From positions 1 to 57,647 of the forward strand of contig NZ_JAKGBZ010000022.1 of assembly GCF_021556475.1 (NCBI RefSeq): a stretch of 57,647 nucleotides of DNA, in the 5' to 3' direction. Made by a program: the position numbers and the translations under genes. Of this stretch, positions 4,861-24,566 are shown one piece after another (within the stretch, counting starts at the first letter, position 1; each line of letters opens with the position of its first letter). Source of the stretch: Acidiphilium iwatense. Lineage in GTDB: Bacteria; Pseudomonadota; Alphaproteobacteria; Acetobacterales; Acetobacteraceae. The notes under the pieces are model-generated. The model made no database searches, was not told the DNA's origin, and saw only the letters and a program-made list of their open reading frames with translations.

Positions 4861-5112
4861 ATGATCACCGCCCGACAATCACGGGCCGCACGCGCGTTGC
4901 TGGGTTGGACACAGGAAACGCTTGCCGACGAGGCCCGGGTATCACTCACCGCGCTCAAACGCCTTGAATCGGAAAATGGCTTCGAGGTGTATGAATCCAC
5001 GCGCGATCAGGTCCGCAGGGCGTTCGAGGCCGCCGGCATCGTCCTCTTGTCCACCGACAAGGGCGAAGGTGTGCTTCTTCTCCACGAGCGGATTGCGCCT
5101 CCAAGGCGATGA
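4861..5112 (+). CDS. XRE-family HTH repressor (QseC-like)
   Basis: An 83-residue DNA-binding protein with one HTH_3 fold: MITARQSRAARALLGWTQETLADEARVSLTALKRLESENG, the recognition helix being about residues 29-37. The short C-terminal part resembles the usual dimerisation strand of small XRE regulators. The frame of the ATG at 4861 is the one encoding the HTH; another ATG at 4857 is out of frame. GGAGG lies about ten bases upstream. By position, directly before a lone DUF2285 gene and an FseA-like pair, it matches QseC, the small XRE regulator of qseM expression in ICEMlSymR7A. That orthology is inferred from context. Confidence 0.75.
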   Translation: MITARQSRAARALLGWTQETLADEARVSLTALKRLESENGFEVYESTRDQVRRAFEAAGIVLLSTDKGEGVLLLHERIAPPRR

Positions 5113-5215: not shown

Positions 5216-5497
5216 ATGGGACAGCAGCCCCAAGAATTTTTCGATGAACCGCCCCCGAGCGAGACGCTCACGCCCTATGACCGTGAGCACATGGTGCTCT
5301 ATTTGCGCCTGCTCGATTCCGCGCGGGATCATGCGGATTGGCGCGAAGCCGTGCAAATCCTGTTCGGCCTCGATCCTGACGGCGATCCCGCACGCTGCCG
5401 CCGCGTTCATGACGCCCACCTGGCACGCGCCCGCTGGATGAGCGAGCACGGCTATCGCGAACTGGTCCGAGAGAGCCAACGCTCGTCGTTGTCGTGA
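5216..5497 (+). CDS. Single-domain DUF2285 protein (QseM-like antiactivator)
   Basis: A 93-residue protein whose core YLRLLDSARDHADWREAVQI continues to DPARCRRVHDAHLARARWMS and ends EHGYRELVRE. This is the compact DUF2285 helix-turn-helix variant, as in QseM, which in ICEMlSymR7A binds and blocks FseA and the quorum-sensing activator. The C-terminal part of the FseA-like gene at 5808 has the same pattern (GGYRKLL against HGYRELV). The ATG at 5216 is the only start in frame; AAGGA lies 13 bases upstream, a weak ribosome site, so low translation is expected. Antiactivator function is inferred. Confidence 0.65.
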   Translation: MGQQPQEFFDEPPPSETLTPYDREHMVLYLRLLDSARDHADWREAVQILFGLDPDGDPARCRRVHDAHLARARWMSEHGYRELVRESQRSSLS

Positions 5498-5608: not shown

Positions 5609-5926
5609 GTGACACCCGATGCAACAAGGTGGCGCTCCTCGGCACGCTACGATCACGTCGAGGGGTTGACCGCATCCGATCTCGCCTGGGAATGGCTCCG
5701 CCGCAACGACGCCTATGACGAGGATTTCGAGGCGTTGAAGCAGGCAGAGGCGGACCCGCAATCGCTGACCGACAAGATCCGGCAGCGATGGGGGTTGCGA
5801 TTTCCCGGTGGACCCGCTCCAACCGCCACCCACCGCACCGATCTTCTGGCTGCCGCAGGAAGACACGAGCGTTGTCGTCCTCGCATCCGCGCCTGGCGTC
5901 CTCACTCCGGACGCCGAAAACCGTAA
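5609..5926 (+). CDS. DUF6499 domain; 5' part of FseA-like frameshift gene
   Basis: A 105-residue zero-frame product. Residues 1-66 are a DUF6499 domain (TPDATRWRSSARYDHVEGL, then DLAWEWLRRNDAYDEDFEAL, ending RQRWGLRFP). After RFP the frame turns into an arginine-rich tail (PRIRAWRPHSGRRKP) with no family signal. The domain continues in the +1 frame as VDPLQPPPTAPIFW, the 5' end of the DUF2285 gene. This is the arrangement of msi172/msi171 in ICEMlSymR7A, where a +1 ribosomal frameshift makes the excision activator FseA. Start GTG 5609 has a strong GGAGGAG site. A 255-residue fusion is predicted by shifting at TTT CCC G (5801-5807). Confidence 0.8.
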   Translation: MTPDATRWRSSARYDHVEGLTASDLAWEWLRRNDAYDEDFEALKQAEADPQSLTDKIRQRWGLRFPGGPAPTATHRTDLLAAAGRHERCRPRIRAWRPHSGRRKP

Positions 5927-6377
5927 GCTTTTTGCCGCAGTTTCGCATGTCGATGAGCAAGGCGCTCACAGCATCTTCGACCTGGGCGCCCTCCAGTCTC
6001 TCCAACTCCTGAGCCTTGACCCGGACAGCGGCGACGCGCTCACCGCCATCGTTCCGCTCGACATCACCGGCTTCGATCGCGTGGAGGCAATCGTGCGCCT
6101 GCTCTCCGCGCTGCATGGCCGCGTCGTTCCGCCGGATACGCGCCTGACGTGGCAGCAGCGCGCCCGCGCACGCCGAATGCTGCAGGCTTTCGACGGCGCG
6201 CGTGACGGCGCGACCCAGATGGAGATCGCGCGCGTCGTCCTGCACATCGATCGCGTCAGCCGCGACGAATGGCAAGCGTCCTCGGCCCGCCACGCCGTCA
6301 TGGCCCTGTTGCGCGACGCCCGGGTCATGATCGCGGGCGGCTATCGCAAGCTTCTCCGGCATCGCCACCGCCGCTGA
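5808..6377 (+). CDS. DUF2285 protein; 3' part of FseA-like frameshift gene
   Basis: A 189-residue frame in +1 relative to the DUF6499 gene. The N-terminal half is a beta-rich region (APIFWLPQEDTSVVVLASAP to TAIVPLDITGFDRVEAI). The C-terminal half is DUF2285 (LTWQQRARARRMLQAFDGAR to IAGGYRKLLRHRHRR). The GTG at 5808 has no ribosome site of its own, which favours production by frameshift from 5609. In ICEMlSymR7A the fused protein activates rdfS and so excision and transfer. The next gene here is an RdfS/AlpA-like HTH, consistent with a local target. A plain frameshift mutation or a sequencing error cannot be excluded from one sequence. Confidence 0.75.
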   Translation: MDPLQPPPTAPIFWLPQEDTSVVVLASAPGVLTPDAENRKLFAAVSHVDEQGAHSIFDLGALQSLQLLSLDPDSGDALTAIVPLDITGFDRVEAIVRLLSALHGRVVPPDTRLTWQQRARARRMLQAFDGARDGATQMEIARVVLHIDRVSRDEWQASSARHAVMALLRDARVMIAGGYRKLLRHRHRR

Positions 6378-6516
6378 TCCCCGCCGACCTCCGGCGGTGT
6401 GGAATTTTGGCTCCCCCCAACTTCGCGCTGCATCTCGTCGGTTTTGCTCCGCCATCGTGACCGTCATCCGCCGCTGCCCGGCAGCGGCCGCCCGCGATCC
6501 CACGGAGCCCCGATCC

Positions 6517-6798
6517 ATGCATCCCGATCCCGTCGTTCTTCCTCCGCGCTTCCTCCGCACCAAGGAGGCCGCCGAGTTCCTCAGCCTTTCCTCACGCACG
6601 CTCGAAAAGCACCGGACCTACGGAACCGGCCCGGCTTATCGCAAGCTCGGCGGGCGCGTCGTCTACGCCATCGACGATCTCGAAGCCTGGGCGGCGCGCG
6701 GCGTCGTCACCTCGACCTCCGATCCGCGCGGGCAGGTGCTGCCGGCGAAGCCGCAGGCGCTGCCCGACCGTCCGCAGCCCGGCCGCTACGCGCGCTGA
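6517..6798 (+). CDS. AlpA/excisionase-like HTH protein (RdfS-like)
   Basis: A 93-residue winged-helix DNA-binding protein of the MerR/AlpA excisionase type: RFLRTKEAAEFLSLSSRTLE then YGTGPAYRKLGGRVVYAIDD. The C-terminal tail is Pro/Gln-rich and disordered. CGGAG ten bases upstream of ATG 6517 supports the start. The gene stands at the head of the replication/transfer operon, directly after the FseA-like genes, as rdfS does in ICEMlSymR7A. The probable roles are recombination directionality factor for excision, transcription factor, or both. Only 14 bp separate it from repA. Confidence 0.75.
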   Translation: MHPDPVVLPPRFLRTKEAAEFLSLSSRTLEKHRTYGTGPAYRKLGGRVVYAIDDLEAWAARGVVTSTSDPRGQVLPAKPQALPDRPQPGRYAR

Positions 6799-9617: not shown

Positions 9618-10132
9618 GCGGCACAGCGACATCCCGCGTGCTCGGCCCCATGTCGGTCGCGCGCCATACCGAAAGCCTCACCCATGTCGAGCTGACCTGG
9701 ATCGAGAAGCGCATCGAGAACTGGATCAGGTTCGGCCGCGAGGCGCACGACCAGGTCCTCGATCGCCGGCGGCGCGTCCTGTCCTTCCGTCCCGGCAGCA
9801 CCTTCGCCTTCATCCGCTGGGCGGCCAACGACTTCGGCACGATCCTTTCGCGCATCGACATCGTGCGCGCCGTCGAGCCGGGCGCGTCCTTTCAGACGCT
9901 GCCTTTCGTGCGCCCCGGCGGCGACATTCTGCTCAAGATCGAAGGCTGGCCGAAGGTCGAGCAGGTGCTCCGCCACATCGACGCGGTGGAAGCCGCCGGC
10001 CTCGATGCTTGCGACGTCGCACCCGATCACTGGCGGCATGTCAACAACCGGATGAGCGCCGGCGAGGAGCCGCGCGCCTACACGGTCGAGCGCCATCAGG
10101 CCTGGCTCAAGCGACGGGAGATCGAAGGATGA
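9614..10132 (+). CDS. DUF2840 family protein
   Basis: A 172-residue DUF2840 protein of unknown function, found almost only in conjugative elements between parA and traF. Recognisable parts are ESLTHVELTWIEKRIENWIR, FGREAHDQVLDRRRRVLSF and FAFIRWAANDFGTILSRIDI. It has no signal peptide or membrane helix, so it is probably cytoplasmic. ATGA overlaps join it to both neighbours. Confidence 0.8.
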   Translation: MSGTATSRVLGPMSVARHTESLTHVELTWIEKRIENWIRFGREAHDQVLDRRRRVLSFRPGSTFAFIRWAANDFGTILSRIDIVRAVEPGASFQTLPFVRPGGDILLKIEGWPKVEQVLRHIDAVEAAGLDACDVAPDHWRHVNNRMSAGEEPRAYTVERHQAWLKRREIEG

Positions 10133-10731
10133 CCCGCTTCGGCTATGTCATAGTGACGTATTTCGCGTGCGTCGGCGTCGCCATCGCATCCTTCGTGTCC
10201 CTGCCGGTCAAGCTGGTGTGGAACGCCTCGGCCAGCGTGCCGATCGGCTTCTACGAAATCGTGCCGGTTCGCCATCCCGCCGTCACCGACCTGCTGGCGG
10301 TCATGCCGCCTAAGCCGCTCGCCGACTTCATGGTCGCGCGCCGCTACATCGGCCGCGACGTGCCGCTGATGAAGCGCGTCATGGCGCTGCCAGGGCAAAC
10401 GGTCTGCCGCATCGGCCTTCACATCACGGTCGACGGCGTGCCGGTCGGCGATGCGCTCGACCGCGATCGCAAGGGCCGCCCGTTGCCGGTCTGGCAGGGC
10501 TGCCAGCGCGTCCCGGCCGGCGATCTCTTCCTGATGAATCCGAACGTCCGCGACAGCTTCGACGGACGCTATTTCGGGCCGCTCCCTGCGCGCGACGTCA
10601 TCGGGCGGGCGATCCCTCTCTACACCGACGAGGCCGGCGATGGCCGTTTCGTCTGGCGCGCGCCGGTCGCGGTGGCGACGCCCGCCAGTTCCATCCCCAC
10701 CGCATCCTCACGGAGAACATCATGTCCATGA
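10129..10731 (+). CDS. traF: TraF, S26-family conjugal pilin peptidase
   Basis: A 200-residue signal-peptidase-like protein. One N-terminal membrane helix (about residues 5-27) precedes the catalytic serine in NASASVPIGFY (S36), and the general-base lysine is in PLMKRVMALPG (K82). RP4 TraF cleaves and cyclises the TrbC pilin; the trbC gene is present at 17408, so the same job is likely. The gene overlaps DUF2840 by four bases, and its last ten bases overlap the second DUF736 gene. Confidence 0.9.
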   Translation: MTRFGYVIVTYFACVGVAIASFVSLPVKLVWNASASVPIGFYEIVPVRHPAVTDLLAVMPPKPLADFMVARRYIGRDVPLMKRVMALPGQTVCRIGLHITVDGVPVGDALDRDRKGRPLPVWQGCQRVPAGDLFLMNPNVRDSFDGRYFGPLPARDVIGRAIPLYTDEAGDGRFVWRAPVAVATPASSIPTASSRRTSCP

Positions 10732-11834: not shown

Positions 11835-12082
11835 CGTCCGTGGCCCTCAATCGCGCTCTGGCGCAGCATGGCGTGCCGTGGAGTGCCGACAGGAGAAGAG
11901 CGGGAACCACGACAGACCGATGGCAGGATAAAAGGGCGCGAGGTGCGCGCTCGGACGGTTGTGGTTTTTCAAAGGGTTATCATACGATTTCGCGAGGTGC
12001 GCCCTCTGGGAGCAGCCTCCGGCGCACCCGCTTTTCCAGCTATTTCAATGCCGTTGCGCGATGTGCGGAGTCCGGCCGATGA
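11831..12082 (+). CDS. Small basic protein bridging transglycosylase and relaxase
   Basis: An 83-residue frame rich in Arg, Ser and Gly, with no family signal. It is supported mainly by coupling: its ATG overlaps the transglycosylase stop and its TGA overlaps the relaxase ATG, both as ATGA. The underlying DNA also holds a 12-bp direct repeat and a 7-bp inverted repeat that look like an oriT, so the frame may exist mostly to carry translation through a cis-acting site. Confidence 0.35.
   Translation: MTSVALNRALAQHGVPWSADRRRAGTTTDRWQDKRARGARSDGCGFSKGYHTISRGAPSGSSLRRTRFSSYFNAVARCAESGR
11931..12010. other. Candidate origin of transfer
   Basis: The direct repeat CGCGAGGTGCGC occurs at 11937-11948 and 11991-12002. 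AGGGCGC (11933-11939) and GCGCCCT (11999-12005) form an inverted repeat enclosing the region. The interior is relatively AT-rich (GGTTTTTCAAAGGGTTATCA). The site lies 70-150 bp before the relaxase start, where oriT is expected. The nick site was not identified. Confidence 0.35.
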
Positions 12083-13818
12083 CCGGCGACGACAATTTCC
12101 GCATCCGCCCTGGCCGCATCCGCTCGACCCGCGCGCAGGCGTCGCGGCCCTTCATCGCGCAAGCACTCGCTGCCGCCAAACGTGCCGGCGGAGCAACCTC
12201 CCGCAGCGGCGCGATCAGCCACGGCCATCGCTCGCGCTTCGGCAAGGGCCAGCGTGCGTCTGTCCAGGCCAACCGGCTCATCACCGCGCGCTCACGCGGC
12301 ACCGTCGTGAAGGCGCGCGTTGTCCGCCACGGCGGACGCGGCGCGCCGCTTGGCACCCATCTCAACTATCTGCGCCGCGAGGGCGTCACCCGGGATGGGG
12401 AAAAGGCCAGGCTGTTCGGACCGGACACCGATGACGCGGATGCGCGGGACTTCGCCGAACGCACCGAGGACGATCGCCACCATTTCCGCTTCATCGTCTC
12501 GCCGGACGACGCCGCGGAGATGTCCGACCTCAAGACCTTCACCCGCGATCTGGTCAGCCAGATGGAGAAGGATTTGGACACCCGCCTTGAATGGGTCGGC
12601 GTCGCGCACTGGAACACCGAGCATCCCCATGTCCATCTGATCGCGCGGGGTGTCCGAGAGGACGGCGCGGATCTCGTCATCTCGCGCGACTATATCAAGG
12701 AAGGGATGCGCGACCGGGCGCGCGATCTCATCACCCAGGAACTCGGCCCACGCACCGATCACGACATCCGCCACGCGATCGAGCGCCAGGTCGAGGCCGA
12801 GCGCTGGACCGATCTCGACCGCCAGCTCGCGCGCGACGGCTATCGCACCGGCGTCATCGACATGGCACCGTCGCCCGATCGCCAGCCCGACGGATTCCAT
12901 GCCCTCAAGGTTGGCCGGCTGCGCAAGCTCGAATCCCTCGGCCTTGCCGATCAGGTCGGCCCCGGCCAGTGGGTGCTCTCGGATAAGGCCGAAGCGACGC
13001 TGCGCGAGCTGGGTGAGCGTAGTGACATCATCAAGCGCATCCATGGGGGTCTCACCGATCGCGGCATCAAGCGCGGCGCGGCGAACTATGTGCTGGCCGG
13101 CGAGAGTCTGGACGATCCGATCGTCGGCCGGCTGGTCGCGCGCGGGCTCGACGACGAATTGAAGGGCACCGCCTATGCAGTGGTCGATGGCGTCGATGGC
13201 CGCACCCATCACATCAAGCTGCCCGACCTCGATGCCACCGGCGACAGCCGGCGCGGCTCGATCGTTGAGCTACGCAAGTTCGATGATGCGCGAGGACAAA
13301 GGCGCGTGGCGCTCGCCGTCCGCTCCGACCTCGACGTCGAGGCGCAGGTCACAGCGTCGGGCGCCACTTGGCTCGACCGGCAGGCGATCGCGCGCGAGCC
13401 TGCGGCACTCGGCGAAGCCGGTTTCGGCGCCGAGGTCCGCGCGGCAATGGAGCTTCGTGCCGAACGCCTGATCGCCGAGGGGCTCGCCGAGCGGCAGGGC
13501 CAGACCGTCATCTTCCAGCGCAAGCTGATCGACACGCTGCGCCATCGCGAGGTCGAGGCGCTTGGGCAGAAGCTCGCGGCCGAGACGGGCCGCTCCTTCA
13601 CCCGATCCGCCGCCGGTGAATTTGTCGCCGGCACCTATAGCCGGCGCTTCGCGCTCAGTTCCGGCCGCTTCGCCATGATCGACGACGGCTTGGGCTTCCA
13701 GCTCGTGCCCTGGACCCCCTCGATCGAAAAGCAGCTTGGCCGCCACGTCTCCGGCATCGCGCGCGGCGATGGCGGTGTCGATTGGGGCTTCGGCCGCAAG
13801 CGCGGACTCGGCCTCTAA
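12079..13818 (+). CDS. rlxS: Relaxase with DUF3363 (RlxS-like)
   Basis: A 580-residue mobilisation nuclease. The metal-binding histidine triad is in NTEHPHVHLIARG (H182, H184, H186). The likely nicking tyrosine is in GTHLNYLRREG (Y97). The remaining 390 residues match DUF3363, typical of relaxases next to VirD4 proteins in alphaproteobacterial ICEs. It should cut one strand at oriT and pilot it into the recipient. The start at 12079 (MTGDDNFRIRPGRIRSTRAQ) is chosen from the ATGA overlap; an in-frame extension to 11959 crosses the oriT-like repeats and is unlikely. Confidence 0.88.
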   Translation: MTGDDNFRIRPGRIRSTRAQASRPFIAQALAAAKRAGGATSRSGAISHGHRSRFGKGQRASVQANRLITARSRGTVVKARVVRHGGRGAPLGTHLNYLRREGVTRDGEKARLFGPDTDDADARDFAERTEDDRHHFRFIVSPDDAAEMSDLKTFTRDLVSQMEKDLDTRLEWVGVAHWNTEHPHVHLIARGVREDGADLVISRDYIKEGMRDRARDLITQELGPRTDHDIRHAIERQVEAERWTDLDRQLARDGYRTGVIDMAPSPDRQPDGFHALKVGRLRKLESLGLADQVGPGQWVLSDKAEATLRELGERSDIIKRIHGGLTDRGIKRGAANYVLAGESLDDPIVGRLVARGLDDELKGTAYAVVDGVDGRTHHIKLPDLDATGDSRRGSIVELRKFDDARGQRRVALAVRSDLDVEAQVTASGATWLDRQAIAREPAALGEAGFGAEVRAAMELRAERLIAEGLAERQGQTVIFQRKLIDTLRHREVEALGQKLAAETGRSFTRSAAGEFVAGTYSRRFALSSGRFAMIDDGLGFQLVPWTPSIEKQLGRHVSGIARGDGGVDWGFGRKRGLGL

Positions 13819-13836: not shown

Positions 13837-15825
13837 ATGCCTGCCACGAAAATTCTTTGGGGTCCGATCATCGTCGTTTCGCTGATCGTGCTGTTCACGA
13901 CCTGGGGCGCAACGCAATTGACGGCGTGGGAACTCGGTTTCCAGCCGCAGCTCGGCGCACCCTGGTTCCGGCTGCTCGGGATGCCGGTCTATTACCCGCC
14001 AGCCTTCTTCTGGTGGTGGTATTTCTACGATGCCTATGCACCGTCGATCTTCGTCCACGGTGCTTATATCGCGGCGTCGGGCGGCTTCCTGTCCGCCGCC
14101 GCCGCGATCGCCATGTCGGTATGGCGGGCGCGCGAGGCGAAGAACGTCGAGACTTATGGCTCGGCGCGCTGGGCACGGCCCGACGAGGTGAAGGATGCCG
14201 GACTGCTCGACCCGGATGGCGTCCTGCTCGGCAAGTTCGATCGCAGCTATCTCCGGCATGACGGCGTCGAGCATGTCTTGTGTTTTGCCCCCACGCGCTC
14301 GGGCAAGGGCGTCGGTCTCGTGGTGCCCACGCTCCTGACCTGGCCCGGTTCCGGCATCGTGCATGACATCAAAGGGGAGAATTGGCAGCTCACGGCCGGT
14401 TTCCGGTCGCAGCATGGAAAGGTGCTGCTGTTCGATCCGACCAACCCCAAATCGGCGGCCTACAATCCGCTGCTCGAGGTGCGCCGCGGCGAATGGGAGG
14501 TCCGCGACGTGCAGAATATCGCCGACGTACTCGTCGACCCGGAGGGCAGCCTTGAGAAGCGGAACCATTGGGAAAAGACGTCCCATGCGTTGCTCGTGGG
14601 CGCGATCCTCCATGTGCTCTATGCCGAGGAGGACAAAACGCTGGCCGGCGTCGCAGCCTTCCTCTCCGATCCGAAGCGCCCGATCGAGTCCACGCTCGCG
14701 GCAATGATGAAGACCGCCCATCTCGGCAAGGCCGGCGTTCATCCCGTCGTCGCATCGGCCGCCCGCGAGCTGCTCAACAAATCCGACAATGAACGGTCGG
14801 GCGTGCTGTCGACCGCCATGTCGTTCCTCGGTCTCTATCGTGATCCCGTCGTCGCCGAGGTGACGCGTCGCTGCGATTGGCGCGTCGCCGATCTCGTCAG
14901 CGGCCCGCGGCCGACGACGCTCTACCTGGTCGTGCCGCCGAGCGACATCTCGCGGACCAAGCCGCTCATCCGGCTGATCCTGAACCAGGCGGGTCGCAGG
15001 CTCACCGAGGATCTGCAGGCTAAGGCGAAGCGGCATCGCCTGCTGCTGATGCTCGACGAGTTCCCCGCGCTCGGCCGGCTCGACTTCTTCGAGAGCGCGC
15101 TCGCCTTCATGGCGGGATACGGGATCAAGTCCTTCTTGATCGCGCAGTCGCTGAACCAGATCGAGAAGGCATACGGGCCGAACAACTCGATCCTCGACAA
15201 CTGCCATGTGCGCGTCAGCTTTGCGACGAATGACGAGCGCACAGCCAAGCGTGTCTCCGACGCACTCGGCACCGCGACCGAGATGAAAGCGATGAAGAAC
15301 TATGCCGGCAGCCGGTTGTCGCCCTGGTTAGGGCACCTCATGGTCTCCAGATCGGAAACCGCCCGGCCGCTGCTCACCCCTGGCGAAGTCATGCAGCTCC
15401 CGCCCGCCGACGAGGTCGTCATGGTGGCGGGCATCCCGCCGATCCGCGCGAAGAAGGCGCGCTATTATGAAGATCGCCGATTTCAGGAACGTATCCTGCC
15501 GCCCCCGGCGCTGACCAAGCCCGACAAGCCGAGATCCGATGATTGGAGCACGCTGCCGCAGCCGGAAAAGCCCAACCTGGCGACCGACGGCGCGGACGAT
15601 GCGGTCGAGGAGGATGAAGACCCGACCGGATCGGAGCGCCGCCGGCAACCCGAGTTGGACCGGACCGCGCCTGTCGAGAACAAGGAGCCGATCGCCAACG
15701 AGTTCGAACTCGATCTCGATGACGATACGCAGGACGACGCGGCCCGCGCCAGCCGGATGCACGATATGATGCAGGGCGTTGCGCGTCAGGTTTCGCTCGA
15801 TCCCGGCGATGATATGGACCTCTGA
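13837..15825 (+). CDS. traG: Conjugal coupling protein TraG/VirD4
   Basis: A 662-residue type IV coupling protein. Two to three N-terminal membrane helices (about residues 5-27, 52-72, 78-96) anchor it. Walker A is PTRSGKGV (152-159) and Walker B LLLMLDEFPAL (about 402-412), followed by AGYGIKSFLIAQSLNQIEKA, a T4CP signature. The C-terminal 100 residues are acidic and probably contact relaxase or substrates. It links the relaxosome to the Trb channel. AAAGGA stands before the ATG at 13837. Confidence 0.95.
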   Translation: MPATKILWGPIIVVSLIVLFTTWGATQLTAWELGFQPQLGAPWFRLLGMPVYYPPAFFWWWYFYDAYAPSIFVHGAYIAASGGFLSAAAAIAMSVWRAREAKNVETYGSARWARPDEVKDAGLLDPDGVLLGKFDRSYLRHDGVEHVLCFAPTRSGKGVGLVVPTLLTWPGSGIVHDIKGENWQLTAGFRSQHGKVLLFDPTNPKSAAYNPLLEVRRGEWEVRDVQNIADVLVDPEGSLEKRNHWEKTSHALLVGAILHVLYAEEDKTLAGVAAFLSDPKRPIESTLAAMMKTAHLGKAGVHPVVASAARELLNKSDNERSGVLSTAMSFLGLYRDPVVAEVTRRCDWRVADLVSGPRPTTLYLVVPPSDISRTKPLIRLILNQAGRRLTEDLQAKAKRHRLLLMLDEFPALGRLDFFESALAFMAGYGIKSFLIAQSLNQIEKAYGPNNSILDNCHVRVSFATNDERTAKRVSDALGTATEMKAMKNYAGSRLSPWLGHLMVSRSETARPLLTPGEVMQLPPADEVVMVAGIPPIRAKKARYYEDRRFQERILPPPALTKPDKPRSDDWSTLPQPEKPNLATDGADDAVEEDEDPTGSERRRQPELDRTAPVENKEPIANEFELDLDDDTQDDAARASRMHDMMQGVARQVSLDPGDDMDL

Positions 15826-16430: not shown

Positions 16431-17411
16431 ATGGTTTCTTACCAGAATACGGAGGCGATGAATCGGGGCGCGCGCATGTTGCGCACAGCCCTCGGCCCCG
16501 CCATCGCCCGGTTTCTGGAAGACGCCAGCGTCGTCGAGGTGATGCTCAACCCCGATGGACGGCTCTGGATCGACCGGCTTTCCGAAGGGCTCGCCGACAC
16601 CGGCGAGCGGCTATCGCCGGCCGATGGCGAGCGCATCATCCGCCTGGTCGCGCACCATGTCGGCGCCGAGGTTCACGCCGGCAACCCGCGCGTGTCGGCC
16701 GAGTTGCCGGGAACAGGAGAGCGGTTCGAGGGTTTGCTGCCGCCCGTCGTCGCGGCGGCTGCCTTCGCCATCCGCAAGCCCGCCGTCGCGGTGTTCACCC
16801 TGGTGGATTACGTCACGGCCGGCATCATGTCCGCGGAGCAATCCGATATCCTCCGCCGCGCCGTCACGGCCCGCGCCAACATTCTCGTCGGGGGCGGCAC
16901 ATCGACCGGCAAGACCACGCTCACCAATGCCCTGCTGGCGGAAGTGGCGACGACCGGCGATCGCGTCGTCATCATCGAGGATACGCGCGAGTTGCAATGC
17001 GTTGCGCCCAACCTCGTCGCCATGCGGACCAAGGATGGCGTTGCCACGCTCTCCGATCTCGTCCGCTCGTCGCTTCGCCTTCGGCCTGATCGCATTCCGA
17101 TTGGCGAAGTGCGCGGCGCCGAAGCCCTCGACCTCCTGAAAGCCTGGGGCACCGGCCATCCCGGCGGCATCGGCACAATCCACGCCGGCAGCGCCATCGG
17201 CGCGCTGCGCCGTCTTGAACAACTCATCCAGGAGGCGGTCGTCACCGTCCCGCGCGCGCTGATCGCGGAGACGATCGACCTCGTGGCCGTTCTCGCCGGC
17301 CGTGGCGCCTCGCGTCGCCTCGTCGAACTCGCCCGCGTCGAAGGTCTCGGCGCCGATGGCGACTATCGCTTCTTCCCCGCAGTCCCAAACCCGCCAGGAG
17401 AGTCCGAATGA
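16431..17411 (+). CDS. trbB: TrbB, VirB11-type secretion ATPase
   Basis: A 326-residue hexameric motor ATPase of the mating channel. Walker A is [16 protein letters not shown] (about 155-170), the Asp box is [11 protein letters not shown] and the His box [10 protein letters not shown]. The N-terminal domain is short, as in TrbB of RP4. It energises pilus assembly and substrate transfer at the inner membrane. The 172-bp gap upstream could hold a trb promoter. Its stop overlaps trbC. Confidence 0.95.
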
Positions 17412-17740
17412 TCCACCGTCTGTCCCCTCTGTGCCGCAGGATCGCGAGCGCAGCATCTGCCTTCGCTCTCAGCATCATGCTTGCGCCGGCCGCCTACGCC
17501 TCCGGCTCGTCCATGCCGTGGGAACAGCCGCTCCAGCAGATCGAGCAATCGATCGAAGGGCCGGTCGCCAAGGTCGTCGCGGTCATCATCATCATCGTCA
17601 CGGGCCTGACGCTCGCGTTCGGGGACACCAGCGGCGGTTTCCGCCGGCTGATCCAGATCGTGTTCGGGCTGTCGATCGCATTCGCCGCCAGTTCCTTCTT
17701 CCTCTCCTTCTTCAGCTTCGGCGGCGGAGCACTGGTGTAA
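17408..17740 (+). CDS. trbC: TrbC, VirB2-like pilin
   Basis: A 110-residue pilin precursor. A signal peptide ends at about residue 32 (LAPAAYASGSS). Two hydrophobic helices follow (VAKVVAVIIIIVTGLTLAFG and LIQIVFGLSIAFAASSFFLS) joined by a polar loop DTSGGFRR, the VirB2/TrbC layout. TraF at 10129 is the expected processing enzyme. The start overlaps trbB by ATGA, and the stop overlaps trbD as TAATG. Confidence 0.93.
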   Translation: MIHRLSPLCRRIASAASAFALSIMLAPAAYASGSSMPWEQPLQQIEQSIEGPVAKVVAVIIIIVTGLTLAFGDTSGGFRRLIQIVFGLSIAFAASSFFLSFFSFGGGALV

Positions 17741-18015
17741 TGGCCGGCGCGATCGACGAGACCATCCCCGGCTTCACCGTGCCGGTGCACCGCGCGCTGA
17801 CCGAGCACATTCTGCTCGGCGGCGTTCCGCGCTCCGTCGCCATCCTGAACGGCACGGTCGCCGCGGCGCTCGGTCTCGGCCTGCGCCTGTGGCTGGTCGG
17901 AATCGGCATCGGCGCGATCGGGCATTTCGCGGCGGTGTGGGCGGCCAAGCGCGATCCGCAATTCGTCGATGTCGTGCGCCGGCATCTGCGCCTCCCCAGC
18001 CACCTCTCGGTCTGA
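17740..18015 (+). CDS. trbD: TrbD, VirB3-like channel protein
   Basis: A 91-residue inner-membrane protein of the VirB3 family: an N-terminal polar segment (ETIPGFTVPVHRALTEHILL), a hydrophobic hairpin (about residues 30-68) and a basic tail. GVPRSVAILNGTVAAALGLG is the family's helix-turn region. VirB3 proteins act with the VirB4/TrbE ATPase, encoded next. The start is fixed by overlap with the trbC stop. Confidence 0.92.
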   Translation: MAGAIDETIPGFTVPVHRALTEHILLGGVPRSVAILNGTVAAALGLGLRLWLVGIGIGAIGHFAAVWAAKRDPQFVDVVRRHLRLPSHLSV

Positions 18016-18025
18016 GGGTACGGCC

Positions 18026-20464
18026 ATGATGAACCTCGCCGAATATCGCCGCACCTCGGCCCGCCTCGCCGACTTCCTGCCCTGGGCCGCTCTCGTCGGC
18101 GAGGGCGTCGTGCTCAACAAGGAAGGCTCGCTGCAAAGGACGGCGCGCTTTCGCGGCCCCGATCTCGACAGCGCCGTGGCGGCCGAGCTGATCGCCGTCG
18201 CCGGCCGCGTCAACAACGCCTTTCGTAGATTGGGAAGTGGCTGGGCGATCTTCGTGGAGGCGCAGCGCGAGGGCGTCGGCGCTTATCCCGCGAGCCGTTT
18301 CCCCGACGCGGCCTCCGCCCTGGTCGATGCCGAGCGCAAGGCCGATTTCGAGGAAGAAGGGGCGCATTTCGAGTCGCGCTATTTCCTCACCTTTACCTAT
18401 CTGCCGCCGGCCGAGGACGCGGCCCGCGCCGAAAGCTGGCTCTACGAGGGCAAGGCATCGCAGGGCGTCGATGCCCACGAGATTCTGCACGGCTTCGTTG
18501 ATCGCACCGGTCGCATCCTCCAGCTCGTCGAAGCCTTCATGCCGGAATGCCGCTGGCTCAATGACGGCGAGACGCTGACCTATTTGCATTCGACCGTCTC
18601 GACCAATCGGCAGCACGTGCGCGTCCCCGAGACGCCGATGTATCTCGACGCGCTGCTCGCCGACCAGGCGCTCACGGGCGGCCTCGAACCGCGCCTCGGC
18701 AACGCGCATCTGCGCATCCTCACCATCGTCGGCTTCCCGACCATGACGACGCCGGGCCTGCTCGACGACCTCAACCGGCTCGCCTTTCCCTATCGCTGGA
18801 GCACGCGAGCGATCCTGCTCGACAAGACGGACGCGATCCGGCTGCTCACGAAGATCAGGCGGCAATGGTTCGCCAAGCGCAAGTCGATCGCCGCGATCTT
18901 GAAGGAGGTGATGACCAACGAGGCGTCGGTGCTGGTCGATTCCGATGCCTCCAACAAGGCAGCCGATGCCGACCTCGCATTGCAGGAATTGGGCGCGGAC
19001 TATGCCGGGCAAGCCTATGTGACCGCGACCGTCACCGTATGGGACGACGACCCGCGCGTCGCGGCCGAGAAGCTGCGGATGGCCGAGAAGGTCGTCCAGG
19101 GCCGCGACTTCACCGCCATGCCGGAGACGGTCAACGCGGCAGACGCCTGGCTCGGCAGCTTGCCGGGGCATGTCTACGCCAATGTCCGGCAGCCGCCGAT
19201 CTCGACACTCAATCTCGCCCACATGATCCCGCTCTCGGCGGTGTGGGCGGGGCCGGAACGGGACGAGCATTTCGGTGAACCCCCTTTGCTCTATGGCAAG
19301 GCCGAAGGCTCGACCCCGTTCCGGTTTTCCCTTCACGTCGGCGATGTCGGGCATACGCTCGTCGTCGGCCCGACCGGCGCCGGCAAATCCGTGCTGCTGG
19401 CGCTCATGGCGCTCCAGTTCCGCCGCTATCCCCGCCCCCAGATCTTCGCGTTCGATTTCGGCGGCTCGATCCGCGCCGCGGCGCTGGCGATGGGCGGCGA
19501 CTGGCATGATCTCGGGGGCGGGCTGACCGAGGGCGCGGAATCCTCGGTGTCGCTCCAGCCGCTCGCGCGCATCCACGACACCTATGAGCGCGCCTGGGCG
19601 GCCGACTGGATCGTAGCAATCCTGATGCGCGAGGGCGTGACGATCACGCCCGAGGTGAAAGAGCATGTCTGGACGGGGTTGACCTCGCTCGCCAGCGCGC
19701 CCATGGGCGAACGCACCATCACCGGCTTCACCGTCCTGCTCCAGTCGAACGACCTGAAGCAGGCGCTCCGGCCCTATTGCGTCGGCGGCCCCTACGGGCG
19801 GTTGCTCGATGCCGAGGACGAACATCTCGGCCAGGCGCCCGTCCAGGCGTTCGAGATCGAGGGCCTTGTCGGCACCGGCGCCGCGCCCGCCGTGCTGGCC
19901 TACCTCTTCCATCGCATCGACGACCGGCTCGACGGCTCGCCCACCTTGCTTATCATCGACGAGGGATGGCTGGCGCTCGACGACGAGGGTTTCGCCGGCC
20001 AGCTCCGCGAATGGCTGAAGACGCTCAGAAAGAAGAACGCCAGCGTCATCTTCGCCACCCAAAGCCTGTCGGACATCGAGGGCAGCCCGATCGCGCCCGC
20101 GATCATCGAGAGCTGCCAGACCCGCGTTCTGCTCCCGAACGAACGGGCGATCGAGCCGCAGATCACCCGCATCTATCAGCAGTTCGGCCTCAACGACCAC
20201 CAGATCGAGATCATCGCGCGCGCCATGCCCAAACGCGATTATTACTGCCAGAGCCGCCGGGGCAATCGCCTGTTCGAGCTGGGGCTGTCGGACGTGGCGC
20301 TGGCGCTGTGTGCTGCATCGTCGAAGACCGACCAGGCCGACATCGCGCGCATTCTTGCCGGGCATGGCCGCGACGGATTCCTCGCCGCCTGGCTGCGGCA
20401 CCGGCAGGTCGATTGGGCCGCCGACCTCATTCCCGACCTCACCAACCTGGAGTCACCGTCATGA
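18026..20464 (+). CDS. trbE: TrbE, VirB4-type ATPase
   Basis: An 812-residue VirB4/CagE ATPase. Walker A is GPTGAGKS (about residues 449-456), Walker B LLIIDEGWLALDD (about 641-653), and the downstream ATQSLSDIEGS is characteristic. The N-terminal 430 residues carry the CagE/TrbE domain that binds the channel. ATGATG at 18026/18029 follows GAGGG; an upstream in-frame extension overlaps trbD and is rejected. The stop overlaps trbJ by ATGA. It drives assembly of the secretion channel. Confidence 0.95.
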   Translation: MMNLAEYRRTSARLADFLPWAALVGEGVVLNKEGSLQRTARFRGPDLDSAVAAELIAVAGRVNNAFRRLGSGWAIFVEAQREGVGAYPASRFPDAASALVDAERKADFEEEGAHFESRYFLTFTYLPPAEDAARAESWLYEGKASQGVDAHEILHGFVDRTGRILQLVEAFMPECRWLNDGETLTYLHSTVSTNRQHVRVPETPMYLDALLADQALTGGLEPRLGNAHLRILTIVGFPTMTTPGLLDDLNRLAFPYRWSTRAILLDKTDAIRLLTKIRRQWFAKRKSIAAILKEVMTNEASVLVDSDASNKAADADLALQELGADYAGQAYVTATVTVWDDDPRVAAEKLRMAEKVVQGRDFTAMPETVNAADAWLGSLPGHVYANVRQPPISTLNLAHMIPLSAVWAGPERDEHFGEPPLLYGKAEGSTPFRFSLHVGDVGHTLVVGPTGAGKSVLLALMALQFRRYPRPQIFAFDFGGSIRAAALAMGGDWHDLGGGLTEGAESSVSLQPLARIHDTYERAWAADWIVAILMREGVTITPEVKEHVWTGLTSLASAPMGERTITGFTVLLQSNDLKQALRPYCVGGPYGRLLDAEDEHLGQAPVQAFEIEGLVGTGAAPAVLAYLFHRIDDRLDGSPTLLIIDEGWLALDDEGFAGQLREWLKTLRKKNASVIFATQSLSDIEGSPIAPAIIESCQTRVLLPNERAIEPQITRIYQQFGLNDHQIEIIARAMPKRDYYCQSRRGNRLFELGLSDVALALCAASSKTDQADIARILAGHGRDGFLAAWLRHRQVDWAADLIPDLTNLESPS

Positions 20465-21219
20465 TCATCCGTCGCTCGCGCGCGGCGTTACTCGCCGCAT
20501 CCATCCTCGCCGGTCCCGTCGCGCTGTCACCGATGCTGGCGACGCCAGCCGATGCGCAATGGGTCGTCTTCGATCCGAACAATTACGCGCAGAACGTGAT
20601 GACGGCGGCGCGCGAGCTACAGCAGATCAACAATCAGATTCAGCAGATCAAGAATCAGACCCAATCCCTGATCAATCAGGCGAAGAACCTTGCGAATATG
20701 CCGTATTCGCTGGTCTCGACCATCACCAGCCAAATTCAGCGCACAGAACAGCTCATCAACCAGGCCCAACGCATCGCCTACAGCGTCTCGTCTATCGATC
20801 AGGCTTTCACCAGCAACTACGGCGCGGTGAACCTGAACAAGAGCCAGCAGCAGATGGTCGCCCAGGCGCAGCAGCGCTGGCAGACCTCGGTTGCGGGCTT
20901 GCAGGATGCCATGCGGATGCAGGCCACCGTGGTCGGCAATATCCCGACCTCGCGCGCCAACGTGACGACGCTTGGCGCGTCCAGCCAGTCGGCGAGTGGG
21001 GCGCTGCAAGCCGCCCAGGTCAATAACCAGCTCCTGGTCCAGATTTCCCAGCAGCTCGCCGACCTCATTGCCCTGGAGGCGGCGGACGGGCGGGCGCAGG
21101 CGCTGATCGCTGCCGACAAGGCGACCAACCAGAACCAGGGCGCGACCCAGCTCTCGACCTTCCTGACGCCCGGCGCCGGCTACCAGCCGACGAGCGTCCA
21201 GATGTTCCACGGCAACTGA
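20461..21219 (+). CDS. trbJ: TrbJ, periplasmic VirB5-like protein
   Basis: A 252-residue secreted protein. The signal peptide ends at TPADAQWVVFD (about residue 33). The mature part is helical and strikingly Gln/Asn-rich (ELQQINNQIQQIKNQTQSLI), as in TrbJ proteins, and the C-terminus includes AGYQPTSVQMFHGN. It is expected in the periplasm as a minor pilus or channel subunit. It is coupled to trbE. Confidence 0.92.
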   Translation: MIIRRSRAALLAASILAGPVALSPMLATPADAQWVVFDPNNYAQNVMTAARELQQINNQIQQIKNQTQSLINQAKNLANMPYSLVSTITSQIQRTEQLINQAQRIAYSVSSIDQAFTSNYGAVNLNKSQQQMVAQAQQRWQTSVAGLQDAMRMQATVVGNIPTSRANVTTLGASSQSASGALQAAQVNNQLLVQISQQLADLIALEAADGRAQALIAADKATNQNQGATQLSTFLTPGAGYQPTSVQMFHGN

Positions 21220-21229
21220 GGCGGCGGCG

Positions 21230-21499
21230 ATGGACGAGAAGATGCTCGCCCGGCTCGGCGCCATCGTGTTCGTGGCGCTGGCGATCACCGCGACGGTGAT
21301 CGAGATGACCCGCCCGAAGCCGGCGCCGGTCGATACGAGCGTCTCGTCCGCCGTCGCGCCTGCCGCCGATCCGCTGCGCGCCGAGCTGAGCCGCTGCCAG
21401 CTTCTCGGCGAAGCCGCCGAGCACGATTCCGACTGCCTGCGCGCTTGGGCGGAAAACCGCCGACGCTTCCTGGCACCGGCCACGTCGGAGGCGCGATAG
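21230..21499 (+). CDS. trbK: TrbK-type entry exclusion protein
   Basis: An 89-residue protein with one N-terminal helix (KMLARLGAIVFVALAITATV) and a small periplasmic domain with two cysteines (SRCQLLGEAAEHDSDCLRAW) that may form a disulphide. The C-x(14)-C pattern and location between trbJ and trbL mark the alternative TrbK family. These proteins block redundant transfer into cells already carrying the element. The start ATG 21230 is preceded by GGCGGCG only, a weak site. Confidence 0.85.
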   Translation: MDEKMLARLGAIVFVALAITATVIEMTRPKPAPVDTSVSSAVAPAADPLRAELSRCQLLGEAAEHDSDCLRAWAENRRRFLAPATSEAR

Positions 21500-21502
21500 A
21501 TA

Positions 21503-22837
21503 ATGCACGGCACCGGCGTCATCGACCAGTTCCTCAACACCTTCACGACCTACATCGACAGCGGGTTCGGGCTGCTGAAGCCCGAGGTGGCGTTCATCGC
21601 CACCACCCTGATCGTCATCGACGTGACGCTCGCGGCGCTGTTCTGGTCATGGGGCGCGGACGACGACATCATCGCCCGCCTGGTCAAGAAAACCCTGTTC
21701 GTCGGCGTCTTCGCCTACCTGATCGGCAACTGGAACAACCTCGCCCAGATCATCTTCAACTCCTTTTCCGGACTCGGCCTGAAAGCATCGGGAGCGAGCC
21801 TCTCGGCCGCAGATTTCCTCCAGCCCGGCCGCATCGCGCAGGTCGGGCTCGACGCCGGCCGGCCGCTGCTCGCTTCCATCTCTGGGCTGATGGGCTATGT
21901 CTCGTTCTTCGAGAATTTCATCCAGATCGCGGTGCTGCTGTTCGCCTGGGTGATGGTGCTGCTCGCCTTCTTCATCCTGGCGATCCAGCTTTTCGTGACG
22001 CTCATCGAATTCAAGCTGAGCACGCTCGCGGGCTTCGTCCTCATTCCCTTCGGCCTGTTCGGCAAATCCGCCTTCATGGCCGAGCGCGTGTTGGGCAACG
22101 TCATCTCGTCCGGCATCAAGGTGCTGGTCCTCGCGGTGATCGTCGGCATCGGCTCGACGCTGTTCTCGCAGTTCACCGCCGCGAGCGGCACATCGCCGAG
22201 CATCGACGATGCGATGGCGATCGTGTTGGCCGCGCTGTCGCTGCTCGGCCTCGGCATCTTCGGCCCCGGCATCGCCAACGGCCTCGTTTCCGGCGGCCCG
22301 CAGCTCGGCGCGGGTGCCGCCGTGGGCGTTGGCCTCGCAGCGGGCGGCACGGTTGCGGCGGGAGCCGCCGCTGTCGGGGCGGCGGCCTCCGGTGGCGCGG
22401 CTCTTGCCGGTGGCGCAGCCGCCGCAGCACGAGGCGGTGCTTCTCTGGCAGGCGGCGTCTCCACCGCCTACAGCCTGGGCGCGGCTGGTCAGTCGGGTGC
22501 GGCCGGTGTCGCCTCCGGCCTTGGCGGCGTCGCTCGCGCCGGTTTCAGCGCCGCCACGTCGCCGCTGCGCCGCGCGGCGGCCAGCATGAAATTGAGCTTC
22601 GCCGAAGGCGCCAAATCCGCCTTCGAGGCGACCAGCGGTGCGTCGACCGGGGGAACGGCCGGCGGTGTGGCCGAAACCGCCGATGCTTCCGCTGCCGGCG
22701 GCGTACCCGCCTGGGCGAAGCGCATGAAGCGCTCCCAGCAGATGACGCATGGCGTCCAGACCGCCGCACACGCCGTCCGTTCCGGTGACGGACATGGCGG
22801 TGGCTCTTCTGTCAACCTTTCCGAAGGCGACCGCTGA
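21503..22837 (+). CDS. trbL: TrbL, VirB6-like channel protein
   Basis: A 444-residue polytopic inner-membrane protein with at least six membrane helices between residues 30 and 285. LKPEVAFIATTLIVIDVTLA and SFFENFIQIAVLLFAWVMVL are TrbL/VirB6 landmarks. The C-terminal 160 residues are Gly/Ala-rich and then polar, the usual disordered cytoplasmic or periplasmic tail. Its stop overlaps the start of trbF (TGATG). Confidence 0.93.
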   Translation: MHGTGVIDQFLNTFTTYIDSGFGLLKPEVAFIATTLIVIDVTLAALFWSWGADDDIIARLVKKTLFVGVFAYLIGNWNNLAQIIFNSFSGLGLKASGASLSAADFLQPGRIAQVGLDAGRPLLASISGLMGYVSFFENFIQIAVLLFAWVMVLLAFFILAIQLFVTLIEFKLSTLAGFVLIPFGLFGKSAFMAERVLGNVISSGIKVLVLAVIVGIGSTLFSQFTAASGTSPSIDDAMAIVLAALSLLGLGIFGPGIANGLVSGGPQLGAGAAVGVGLAAGGTVAAGAAAVGAAASGGAALAGGAAAAARGGASLAGGVSTAYSLGAAGQSGAAGVASGLGGVARAGFSAATSPLRRAAASMKLSFAEGAKSAFEATSGASTGGTAGGVAETADASAAGGVPAWAKRMKRSQQMTHGVQTAAHAVRSGDGHGGGSSVNLSEGDR

Positions 22838-23520
22838 TGTTCAAACGACCCGCCGCGCATTACGGCAAAGCACCTGAGCCCGAGACGCCCTATCAGCGCG
22901 CCGCGCAAGCCTGGGACGACCGCATCGGCTCGGCCCGTGTGCAGGCCCGCAACTGGCGCCTCATGGCATTCGGCTCGCTCGCGCTCTCGGCCGGCTTCGC
23001 CGCCGCGCTCGTATGGGAAACGACGCGCGGCACCGTGGTGCCATGGGTGGTGCAGGTCGATCACCTCGGCCAGGCGCAGGCCGTGGCGCCTGCCGTTGCC
23101 GGATACACGCCGAGCGATCCGCAAATCGCCTGGTATCTGGCCCGCTTCATAGAGGAAGTCCGCAGCATCCCTGACGATCCGATCGTCGTGCGGCAGAACT
23201 GGCTGCGCGCCTATGATTTCACGACATCGGCCGGCGCCGTCGCGCTCAACGAATATGCTCGCGCCAACGACCCTTTCGCCAAGATCGGCAAGCAGCAGAT
23301 CGCGGTCGATGTCTCCAGCGTCATCCGTGCATCGCCCCGTTCCTTTCGCGTGGAATGGGTCGAGCACCGCTATCAGGACGGCGCGCTCGCCGGCACCGAA
23401 CGCTGGGCCGCAATCCTCACCGTCGTCGTCCAGACGCCGACCAGCGCCGACGCGCTGCGGAAGAACCCCCTCGGAATCTACGTCAACGCCATCAACTGGT
23501 CACGGGAGCTTGGGCAATGA
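22837..23520 (+). CDS. trbF: TrbF, VirB8-like channel protein
   Basis: A 227-residue bitopic protein: a cytoplasmic N-terminus (residues 1-43), one membrane helix (LMAFGSLALSAGFAAALVWE) and a periplasmic NTF2-like VirB8 domain ending NPLGIYVNAINWSRELGQ, the conserved TrbF C-terminus. It nucleates assembly of the channel core. The start overlaps trbL, and the stop overlaps trbG by ATGA. Confidence 0.94.
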   Translation: MFKRPAAHYGKAPEPETPYQRAAQAWDDRIGSARVQARNWRLMAFGSLALSAGFAAALVWETTRGTVVPWVVQVDHLGQAQAVAPAVAGYTPSDPQIAWYLARFIEEVRSIPDDPIVVRQNWLRAYDFTTSAGAVALNEYARANDPFAKIGKQQIAVDVSSVIRASPRSFRVEWVEHRYQDGALAGTERWAAILTVVVQTPTSADALRKNPLGIYVNAINWSRELGQ

Positions 23521-24566
23521 AGCCGTCTTTCCGTAAAGCCGGAAGCCCGGCTTTGCTCGCAATCGTAAACCTGCGTTTCCGCGCATTCGCGCTGCCGATC
23601 GCGCTGCTTCTCGCATCGGCCCTTGGCGGCTGCGCCACAACCTTCAAGCCACCTGAGATCTCCTACGATAATGCAACGCCGGCCGTGCTCACCCCCGATC
23701 CACCAGCGCCGGTGAAGGTGGTGGAATTGCCGAAGCCGCTTCCGCTTCCCGGCCAGTTGAAGCCGATTGAGCACGGCAAGCTGCCGCCGGAACCGGCCGA
23801 TCCCGCCGCGCGCATCAGGCAGGCCAACGCCGCCGCGCGCGTGCAGCCCAAGCGCGACGGCTTTATCAACGCCATGCAGGTCTATCCCTTCGCCGATGGC
23901 GCGCTCTATCAGGTCTATTGCGCCGTGGGCGAGATCACCGACATCGCGCTCCAGCCGGGCGAGCAGCTTGTTGGCTCCGGCCCGGTCGCGGCCGGCGACA
24001 CGGTGCGGTGGATCATCGGCGACACCCAGAGCGGAGCCGGAGCGACCGCCCAGGTCCATATTCTCGTCAAGCCGACGCGGCCCGAGCTGGTGACGAACCT
24101 CATCATCAACACCGATCGCCGCACCTATCACATGGAGCTGCGTTCGGATGAGAAAACCTACATGGCCTCGGTCTCCTGGCAATATCCGCAGGACCAGCTC
24201 ATCGCGCTGCGCCGGCAGAACGCAGAAGTCCAAGCCGCGCAGCCCGTCGCCACGGGTGTCGATCTCGCCCGCATCAACTTCCGCTATACGATCGAGGGCG
24301 ACCGTGTGCCCTGGCGTCCGCTACGCGCCTTCGACGACGGGCGGCAGGTCTACATCGAATTCCCGTCCGGCATCGCTCAGGGCGAGATGCCGCCGCTGTT
24401 CGTCGTCGGCCCTGCCGGCAAGACCTCCGAACTGGTGAACTACCGCGTCCGCGACAACTACATGATCGTCGATCGGCTGTTCGCCGCCGCCGAACTCCGC
24501 TTCGGCGACAAGAACTCCGAGAAGCGCGTCCGCATCGTGCGTACCGACGGGAGGCCGGCGTCGTGA
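23517..24566 (+). CDS. trbG: TrbG, VirB9-like outer-ring lipoprotein
   Basis: A 349-residue protein with a lipoprotein signal (LLASALGGCATT, lipidated Cys39). A proline-rich linker leads to the VirB9 beta domain: VYPFADGALYQVYCAVGEIT, VHILVKPTRPELVTNLIINT, DRRTYHMELRS, then FRYTIEGD. With TrbI it forms the outer-membrane core of the channel. It is coupled to both neighbours by ATGA. Confidence 0.94.
   Translation: MKPSFRKAGSPALLAIVNLRFRAFALPIALLLASALGGCATTFKPPEISYDNATPAVLTPDPPAPVKVVELPKPLPLPGQLKPIEHGKLPPEPADPAARIRQANAAARVQPKRDGFINAMQVYPFADGALYQVYCAVGEITDIALQPGEQLVGSGPVAAGDTVRWIIGDTQSGAGATAQVHILVKPTRPELVTNLIINTDRRTYHMELRSDEKTYMASVSWQYPQDQLIALRRQNAEVQAAQPVATGVDLARINFRYTIEGDRVPWRPLRAFDDGRQVYIEFPSGIAQGEMPPLFVVGPAGKTSELVNYRVRDNYMIVDRLFAAAELRFGDKNSEKRVRIVRTDGRPAS

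What the first reader, a model, noticed from the sequence alone, without database searches (positions are those of the whole stretch)
5609..6377. Predicted +1 ribosomal frameshift making an FseA-like ICE activator
The DUF6499 frame ends its conserved part at RWGLRFP and then becomes an Arg-rich tail. The DUF2285 frame overlaps it in +1 and continues as VDPLQPPPTAPIFW, with no ribosome site of its own. A shift at TTT CCC G (5801-5807) would give a 255-residue protein. In ICEMlSymR7A (Mesorhizobium) the same two-gene arrangement is fused by a low-frequency +1 frameshift to make FseA, which turns on excision. Seeing it in what looks like an acidophile ICE would extend that control system.
Basis: partly seen in the sequence, partly recalled or inferred. 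Interest (0 to 1): 0.8.

Follow-up and report, generated by a model that had tools for sequence, protein, structure and literature searches.

The report
Known frameshift switch for mobile DNA
Two overlapping genes in a mobile DNA element are very probably joined by a ribosome that skips one base, making a switch protein for the element's transfer; this kind of switch is already known from thousands of bacteria, but the comparison shows which codon probably slips, and it is not the one first proposed.

Summary
DUF6499 (5609-5926) and DUF2285 (to 6377) lie in frames 0 and +1; skipping one base at 5801-5804 gives 255 residues. It is an FseA homologue: a QseM homologue lies upstream, an RdfS homologue downstream, and relaxase, TraG and Trb genes follow. 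The system is published: about 61% of 4709 FseA homologues carry the +1 frameshift (PMC10359603), so this is a new member, not an extension.

The proposed slip codon is probably wrong. Of 187 +1 sites, 181 keep TTT at the fifth codon from Trp, followed by C (173) or T (8); the next codon is CCC in only 92 of these. CGC and others there cannot re-pair after a +1 move, so the likeliest event is tRNA-Phe slipping UUU to UUC. GGGGG or GGAGG lies six bases upstream in 152, one codon further than published for prfB; rare CGA usually precedes UUU. All 66 distinct named loci are +1, so mutation or sequencing error is very unlikely.

Not shown: that the shift occurs here, its frequency, or a functional FseA box (the window's is degenerate).

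The parts
5609..5926 (+). 0-frame ORF with DUF6499 (PF20109), the start of fseA; GTG start behind GGGAGGAG
5790..5794 (+). Shine-Dalgarno-like GGGGG (in the TGG GGG codons of WGL), 6 nt before the slip codon
   Evidence: median predicted duplex energy with the anti-SD -9.1 kcal/mol at 181 sites against 0.1 for 20228 other positions in the same genes
5798..5800 (+). CGA codon, in the E site when UUU is in the P site
   Evidence: CGA is 121 of 147 Arg codons at this place against 10% in the rest of these genes; 4% of Arg codons in ten window genes
5801..5804 (+). slip site TTT_C: P-site tRNA-Phe proposed to move from UUU to UUC
   Evidence: TTT in 181 of 187 sites; base after it C 173, T 8 in those 181
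5805..6377 (+). +1-frame part of fseA; DUF2285 (PF10074) at 6048-6359
5216..5497 (+). qseM-like lone DUF2285 gene (antiactivator homologue)
   Evidence: (searched from 5213): 7uqt QseM, E 4e-18; PF10074 E 8e-7
4861..5112 (+). HTH_3 protein, possibly qseC-like (tentative, by position only)
6517..6798 (+). rdfS-like gene (HTH_17), 139 nt after fseA
   Evidence: 8dgl RdfS, E 5e-10
6400..6427 (+). region aligned with the FseA-box-like inverted repeat of relatives (TGGAAT-N16-TTCGCG); not a good repeat in the window
   Evidence: 69 of 114 loci (the window is one of the 114, not of the 69) have a 6-16-6 repeat with at most 1 mismatch here
10096..10695 (+). TraF-like signal peptidase S26
11959..13818 (+). 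relaxase (Relaxase/DUF3363)
13837..15825 (+). TraG coupling protein
16431..25759 (+). Trb-type T4SS genes (three tested: ATPase, CagX/TrbG, TrbI)
30947..30996 (-). 3' part of tRNA-Gly (30948-31022), a 50-nt core repeated at two other places of the genome; presumed att site

Best explanation
5609-6377 is fseA of a conjugative, probably integrative element. Ribosomes translate DUF6499 in frame 0. At TGG GGG TTG CGA UUU C the anti-Shine-Dalgarno of 16S rRNA pairs with GGGGG and pauses the ribosome with UUU in the P site. In a minority of passes peptidyl-tRNA-Phe (GAA) slips one base from UUU to UUC, and translation goes on into DUF2285, giving a 255-residue activator. Most ribosomes stay in frame and end further on (here at 5926) with an inactive DUF6499 stub. 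FseA would switch on the downstream rdfS-like gene and hence excision and transfer, and the upstream QseM-like protein would hold it in check. Shown here: gene identity, frames, and conservation of the site. Inferred from the homologous published system: that the shift occurs, its low rate, and the regulatory targets. Inferred from conservation: which codon slips and the roles of GGGGG and CGA.
For: Domains and frames. RovC aligned through the junction without a gap. 189 of 191 out-of-frame homologues are +1. At the 181 TTT sites the stretches in which both frames are open overlap only at positions 10-18 from the Trp codon. TTT is 181 of 181 Phe codons there against 28% of 1240 Phe codons elsewhere in the same genes; GGG 141 of 169 Gly against 14%; CGA 121 of 147 Arg against 10%. 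14 sites change Gly to Arg and read TGGAGG, which keeps or improves the anti-SD pairing. 35 single-frame homologues: TTT at this codon in 0 of the 25 with a WG site. Pro is the ninth fused residue in 163 of 181. The 16-mer TGGGGGTTGCGATTTC occurs in 4 of 289 genomes, once each, always inside an fseA locus (against the places). 66 of 66 distinct named loci and 70 of 73 distinct loci of the host and its family are +1. QseM and RdfS homologues flank it. PMC10359603 describes the system.
Against: No protein or reporter data for this locus. The window's FseA box is degenerate, and in the relatives the repeat lies about 93-95 nt before the assigned rdfS start, where the published one lies at 62-67. 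The only LuxR/TraR-type gene of the genome is beside another fseA (C86), so upstream control differs from R7A or acts in trans. Six of 187 sites lack TTT at the standard codon; two of these (L085, L229) have it one codon later, and L078 is probably mis-anchored. One TTT row (L173) has a stop in the +1 frame before DUF2285. In the window itself slips at CGA, UUU or CCC all give the same protein, so the slip codon rests on comparison alone. The loci are related, so simple odds overstate independence.
Confidence: 0.87

Rival explanations
1. The shift happens at CCC (tRNA-Pro moves CCC to CCG).
For: CCC is the commonest codon after TTT (92 of 181), and the product in the window would be the same.
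Against: 89 of 181 TTT sites have another codon there: CGC 53, CCT 16, CGA 9, TGT 4, TGC 3, CGT 2, TCC 1, CAC 1; by pairing rules none of these re-pairs after a +1 move. In the paralogue C68 this slip would give RFR, not the family's usual RF[AP] (Pro 93 and Ala 56 of 181). A tRNA-Pro(GGG) gene exists, so CCC has a cognate tRNA.
Confidence: 0.06
2. An out-of-frame skip while CGA is in the P site, pushed by the Shine-Dalgarno duplex at prfB-like 3-nt spacing, with UUC read next.
For: GGGGG to CGA spacing is 3 nt, as published for prfB (PMC12421855); CGA is strongly enriched.
Against: The skipped base would be free, yet it is T as part of TTT in 181 of 187; CGA cannot re-pair with GAU; CGA is absent in 66 of 187 sites.
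Confidence: 0.08
3. DUF2285 is translated alone from an internal start and meets DUF6499 as a second protein (reinitiation at the GGGGG).
For: GGGGG resembles a ribosome site; a GTG exists in the +1 frame at 5808; some start codon lies in the +1 frame before DUF2285 in 178 of 181 loci.
Against: 0 of 181 sites have ATG/GTG/TTG 4-11 nt after the GGGGG in the +1 frame. Starts with a 4-base SD match occur in 32 of 181, close to 25 of 181 in the third frame. The GTG at 5808 lies 13 nt behind the GGGGG. TTT conservation would be unexplained.
Confidence: 0.03
4. A pseudogene or sequencing error: one base inserted near 5801-5805.
For: A single-base change would give one open frame.
Against: The same arrangement in 66 of 66 distinct named loci and 70 of 73 distinct loci of the host and its family; the window's tree clade of 35 rows is all +1; the site is more conserved than codon use elsewhere in the genes.
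Confidence: 0.01

Closest known systems
FseA (msi172-msi171) of ICEMlSymR7A, Mesorhizobium japonicum
   Same: DUF6499 and DUF2285 overlap in +1; WGL coded by UGGGGG; QseM and RdfS homologues nearby; relaxase/TraG/Trb transfer genes (PMC10359603 and calls here)
   Different: Here fseA lies directly upstream of the rdfS-like gene; the genome's only LuxR/TraR-type gene is on another contig; FseA box degenerate in the window and further from the rdfS start in relatives; activity not tested
RovC of Yersinia (6xz5)
   Same: DUF6499 plus DUF2285; gapless alignment through the junction
   Different: One continuous frame; regulator of a T6SS
prfB (RF2) +1 frameshift
   Same: GGGGG Shine-Dalgarno-like stimulator and a run of four pyrimidines; +1 P-site slip
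   Different: prfB: 3 nt between SD and CTTT and an in-frame UGA (PMC12421855 passages). Here: 6 nt, TTTC or TTTT, a sense codon in the A site
UUU_CGN +1 motif of plant amalgaviruses and the UCC_UUU_CGU site of influenza PA-X
   Same: P-site UUU followed by C; 64 of 181 fseA TTT sites read TTT CGN
   Different: Eukaryotic ribosomes; no stimulator is evident for PA-X (PMC5009743 passage; amalgavirus motif from the abstract of PMC5052127 in a listing); unrelated genes, so convergence at most

Membership tests
FseA-like +1 PRF activators | N-terminal DUF6499 with the AWEFLRRN-type motif | tested here: met
   PF20109 E 5e-24; AWEWLRRN
FseA-like +1 PRF activators | C-terminal DUF2285 | tested here: met
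   PF10074 E 6e-31
FseA-like +1 PRF activators | two overlapping frames in +1 with a conserved site (WGL coded by UGGGGG) | tested here: met
FseA-like +1 PRF activators | fused protein actually made at low frequency | not testable with these tools
   needs mass spectrometry or a reporter
FseA-like +1 PRF activators | rdfS target gene nearby | tested here: met
   6517-6798 against RdfS 8dgl, E 5e-10
FseA-like +1 PRF activators | FseA box (two inverted hexamers 15-16 bp apart) upstream of rdfS | tested here: inconclusive
   69 of 114 loci have it with at most 1 mismatch; the window aligns at the place but its two hexamers do not match each other well
FseA-like +1 PRF activators | QseM antiactivator | tested here: met
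   7uqt, E 4e-18; binding not tested
FseA-like +1 PRF activators | transcription driven by TraR quorum sensing (a feature of the R7A paradigm) | tested here: inconclusive
   the only Autoind_bind match in the genome is on contig C86; the element is not closed and control in trans is not excluded
Integrative and conjugative element | T4SS, coupling protein, relaxase | tested here: met
Integrative and conjugative element | integrase and two att sites bounding the element | tested here: inconclusive
   50-nt tRNA-Gly repeat at three places, tyrosine integrases beside two of them; the element runs off the contig start
prfB-type +1 frameshift | SD 3 nt before CTTT and an in-frame UGA | tested here: not met
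   6 nt, TTTC, no stop in the A site

The most novel reading that the evidence does not exclude
fseA carries a class of bacterial +1 frameshift that is mechanically distinct from prfB: tRNA-Phe slips from UUU to UUY with a sense codon in the A site, helped by a Shine-Dalgarno duplex at initiation-like distance (6 nt, a holding rather than a pushing geometry) and by a weakly paired CGA in the E site. One design kept across hundreds of mobile elements would then set transfer rates by P-site tRNA slippage alone.
Probability: 0.4. Interest if true: 0.5.

Novelty: new member of a known kind. Interest (0 to 1): 0.3.

Why it matters
The locus itself adds one more case to a published family. The useful gain is a sharper, testable site: the comparison points to UUU, GGGGG/GGAGG and CGA, and suggests that the CCC-G emphasis would send a mutagenesis study to the wrong codon. 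If the geometry is right, fseA is a natural sense-codon +1 frameshift that can be set against prfB to separate the pausing and the pushing roles of an internal Shine-Dalgarno duplex.

Tried and rejected
CCC-G as the slip site, internal initiation, pseudogene or sequencing error: rejected as told under rivals. Downstream RNA structure as a stimulator: 66 nt downstream of 82 representative sites folded hardly better than codon shuffles (mean z -0.25, 13% under -1.5). Lack of a cognate tRNA for CCC: rejected, tRNA-Pro(GGG) is present. Viral contigs: of 33 pattern matches one distant locus was confirmed, and it is single-frame. Covariation between FseA-box hexamers and DUF2285 residues was only looked at. 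GeneTack paper PMC3711429: searched for six terms, nothing found. PMC9601964 (two passages) states that the Azorhizobium caulinodans homologue has no frameshift; I did not test that.

Rows dropped: identical DUF6499 DNA was counted once (262 hits to 236). Of 189 +1 rows two (L230, L088) had no Trp codon found; ten rows had no DUF2285 hit in reach; the 181-row tests leave out the six non-TTT rows. L173 (a stop in the fusion) was left out of the tree, which used 108 representatives of 215 rows. The FseA-box test used the 114 of 187 loci in which the script found an rdfS-like start; its shuffle control covers perfect repeats only. Four DUF6499 places listed were not fetched (G109, G677, G664:C10, G644:C2:991935). 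The 80 named loci are the best of 527 confirmed and so lean to close relatives; 66 are distinct.

Full report
Observation. DUF6499 is open in frame 0 from 5609 to 5926 and DUF2285 lies in +1 up to 6377. Skipping one base at 5801-5804 gives 255 residues.

Is it FseA? Both domains match their Pfam models. The profile of eight fused homologues finds RovC (6xz5, E 4e-15) and, weakly, QseM (7uqt, E 0.04) among solved structures. The window fusion alone aligns with RovC at WGLRFPVDP/WGVMKYIDP with no gap, though the match is weak (E 0.0025). The gene upstream is a QseM homologue and the gene downstream an RdfS homologue. A TraF-like peptidase, relaxase, TraG and Trb genes follow. The host has five DUF6499 loci, and in all five DUF2285 is in +1. 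A lone DUF2285/QseM-like gene lies close to each: upstream on the same strand in the window, C68 (below the Pfam cut-off), C71 and C87, and on the opposite strand just downstream in C86.

Known background. PMC10359603 (abstract, introduction, first results section, discussion and passages) describes FseA made by a low-frequency +1 frameshift, a curated set of 4709 homologues of which about 61% carry the conserved +1 site, the UGGGGG coding of WGL, QseM binding to DUF6499, and the FseA box. The original 2015 PNAS report was not held, so I cannot say how much of the site's anatomy it gives. Searches for FseA, msi172/msi171, DUF2285 or DUF6499 led to a few papers of which I saw passages; in these passages none names the slip codon.

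Conservation of the site. From 261 loci I took 236 distinct DUF6499 hits: 189 with DUF2285 in +1, 2 in +2, 35 in the same frame, 10 with none in reach. At 187 of the +1 sites I counted codons from the conserved Trp: the fifth codon is TTT in 181. In these 181 the base after it is C in 173 and T in 8, and the next codon is CCC 92, CGC 53, CCT 16, CGA 9, others 11. In the remainder of the same genes TTT is 28% of 1240 Phe codons. GGG is 141 of 169 Gly codons at the second place (14% elsewhere) and CGA 121 of 147 Arg codons at the fourth (10% elsewhere). In ten window genes TTT is 12% of Phe and CGA 4% of Arg codons. Where Gly is replaced by Arg (14 sites) the codon is AGG, giving the better Shine-Dalgarno TGGAGG. 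TGG[GA]GG-N6-TTTY is present in 152 of 187. The exact window 16-mer occurs in 4 of 289 genomes, once each, always in an fseA locus, and the reversed control has none.

Which codon slips. At the 181 TTT sites the stretches where both frames are open overlap only at 10-18 bases after the start of the Trp codon, that is CGA, UUU and the next codon. Only UUU is conserved beyond its coding need in nearly all sites, and only tRNA-Phe re-pairs after +1 in nearly all (UUU to UUC or UUU). At the next codon re-pairing is possible for CCC only, 92 of 181. Single-frame homologues do not keep the site: TTT 0 of 25. I therefore place the slip at UUU by inference. The predicted anti-SD pairing is strong (median -9.1 against 0.1 kcal/mol). 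Its distance to the slip codon is 6 nt, whereas PMC12421855 (passages) gives 3 nt for prfB. PMC6321510 (passages) reports that E-site pairing stability goes inversely with +1 shifting at the prfB site, though its own limited E-site mutants did not single this out; weak pairing of CGA is recalled. No downstream structure stands out.

Against error. All 66 distinct named loci are +1 (TTT in 65 of them) and so are 70 of 73 distinct loci of the host and its family; of the other three, two have no DUF2285 hit in reach and one is +2. On a tree of 108 representatives (quick method) the label changes at least 8 times, 5 forced by starred branches, and the window sits in a group of 35 rows, all +1 (SH-aLRT 97).

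Target. Upstream of the rdfS-like gene, 69 of 114 loci have two inverted hexamers 16 bp apart near -95 with at most one mismatch, about half of them with TTCGCC as the right half; perfect repeats with 15-17 bp spacing occur in 35 of 114 against a mean of 6.5 (largest 12) in 50 shuffles. The 6-16-6 geometry is that of the published FseA box, but the published right hexamer lies 62-67 nt before the rdfS start and here it starts 93-95 nt before the start I assigned. The window aligns there but reads TGGAAT-N16-TTCGCG, a poor repeat. This is a result against full conservation of the circuit in the window.

Element. The 3' end of tRNA-Gly at 30948-31022 carries a 50-nt core found at two other places of the genome, with tyrosine integrases next to both. 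The arrangement suggests several elements at one tRNA, but contigs end too early to prove it. The only LuxR-type receptor lies beside a different fseA.

Verdict. An ordinary, well-preserved member of the FseA family.

Noticed in passing
intergenic regions upstream of rdfS-like genes, for example L162, L198, L280, L104: FseA-box hexamers fall into classes (TTCGCC, TTGTCA, TCGACA, ATCCCA, TTCACC) that go with different DUF2285 recognition segments; a possible DNA-binding code of this helix-turn-helix variant, or only shared descent.
   Followed up: partly
L321 (C57:81458-81507) and L322 (C68 near 33437): Two further copies of the tRNA-Gly 3'-end core, each with a tyrosine integrase on one side and a Fic protein on the other: probably a tandem array of integrated elements.
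   Followed up: partly
L328 (C86:14617-15048): The genome's only LuxR/TraR-type autoinducer receptor lies about 2 kb upstream of the C86 fseA copy.
   Followed up: no
L252, L250, L242: Single-frame fseA homologues that fall among +1 rows in the tree (L252 reads WGLRFGADP in one frame): likely separate losses or gains of the frameshift.
   Followed up: partly
L176 and L314: DUF2285 lies in +2 although a TTT site is present: probably a second indel (decayed copies).
   Followed up: no
window 4300-4641 and 10722-11069: Two similar small ORFs (DUF736-like by recall) flank the regulatory and transfer blocks.
   Followed up: no
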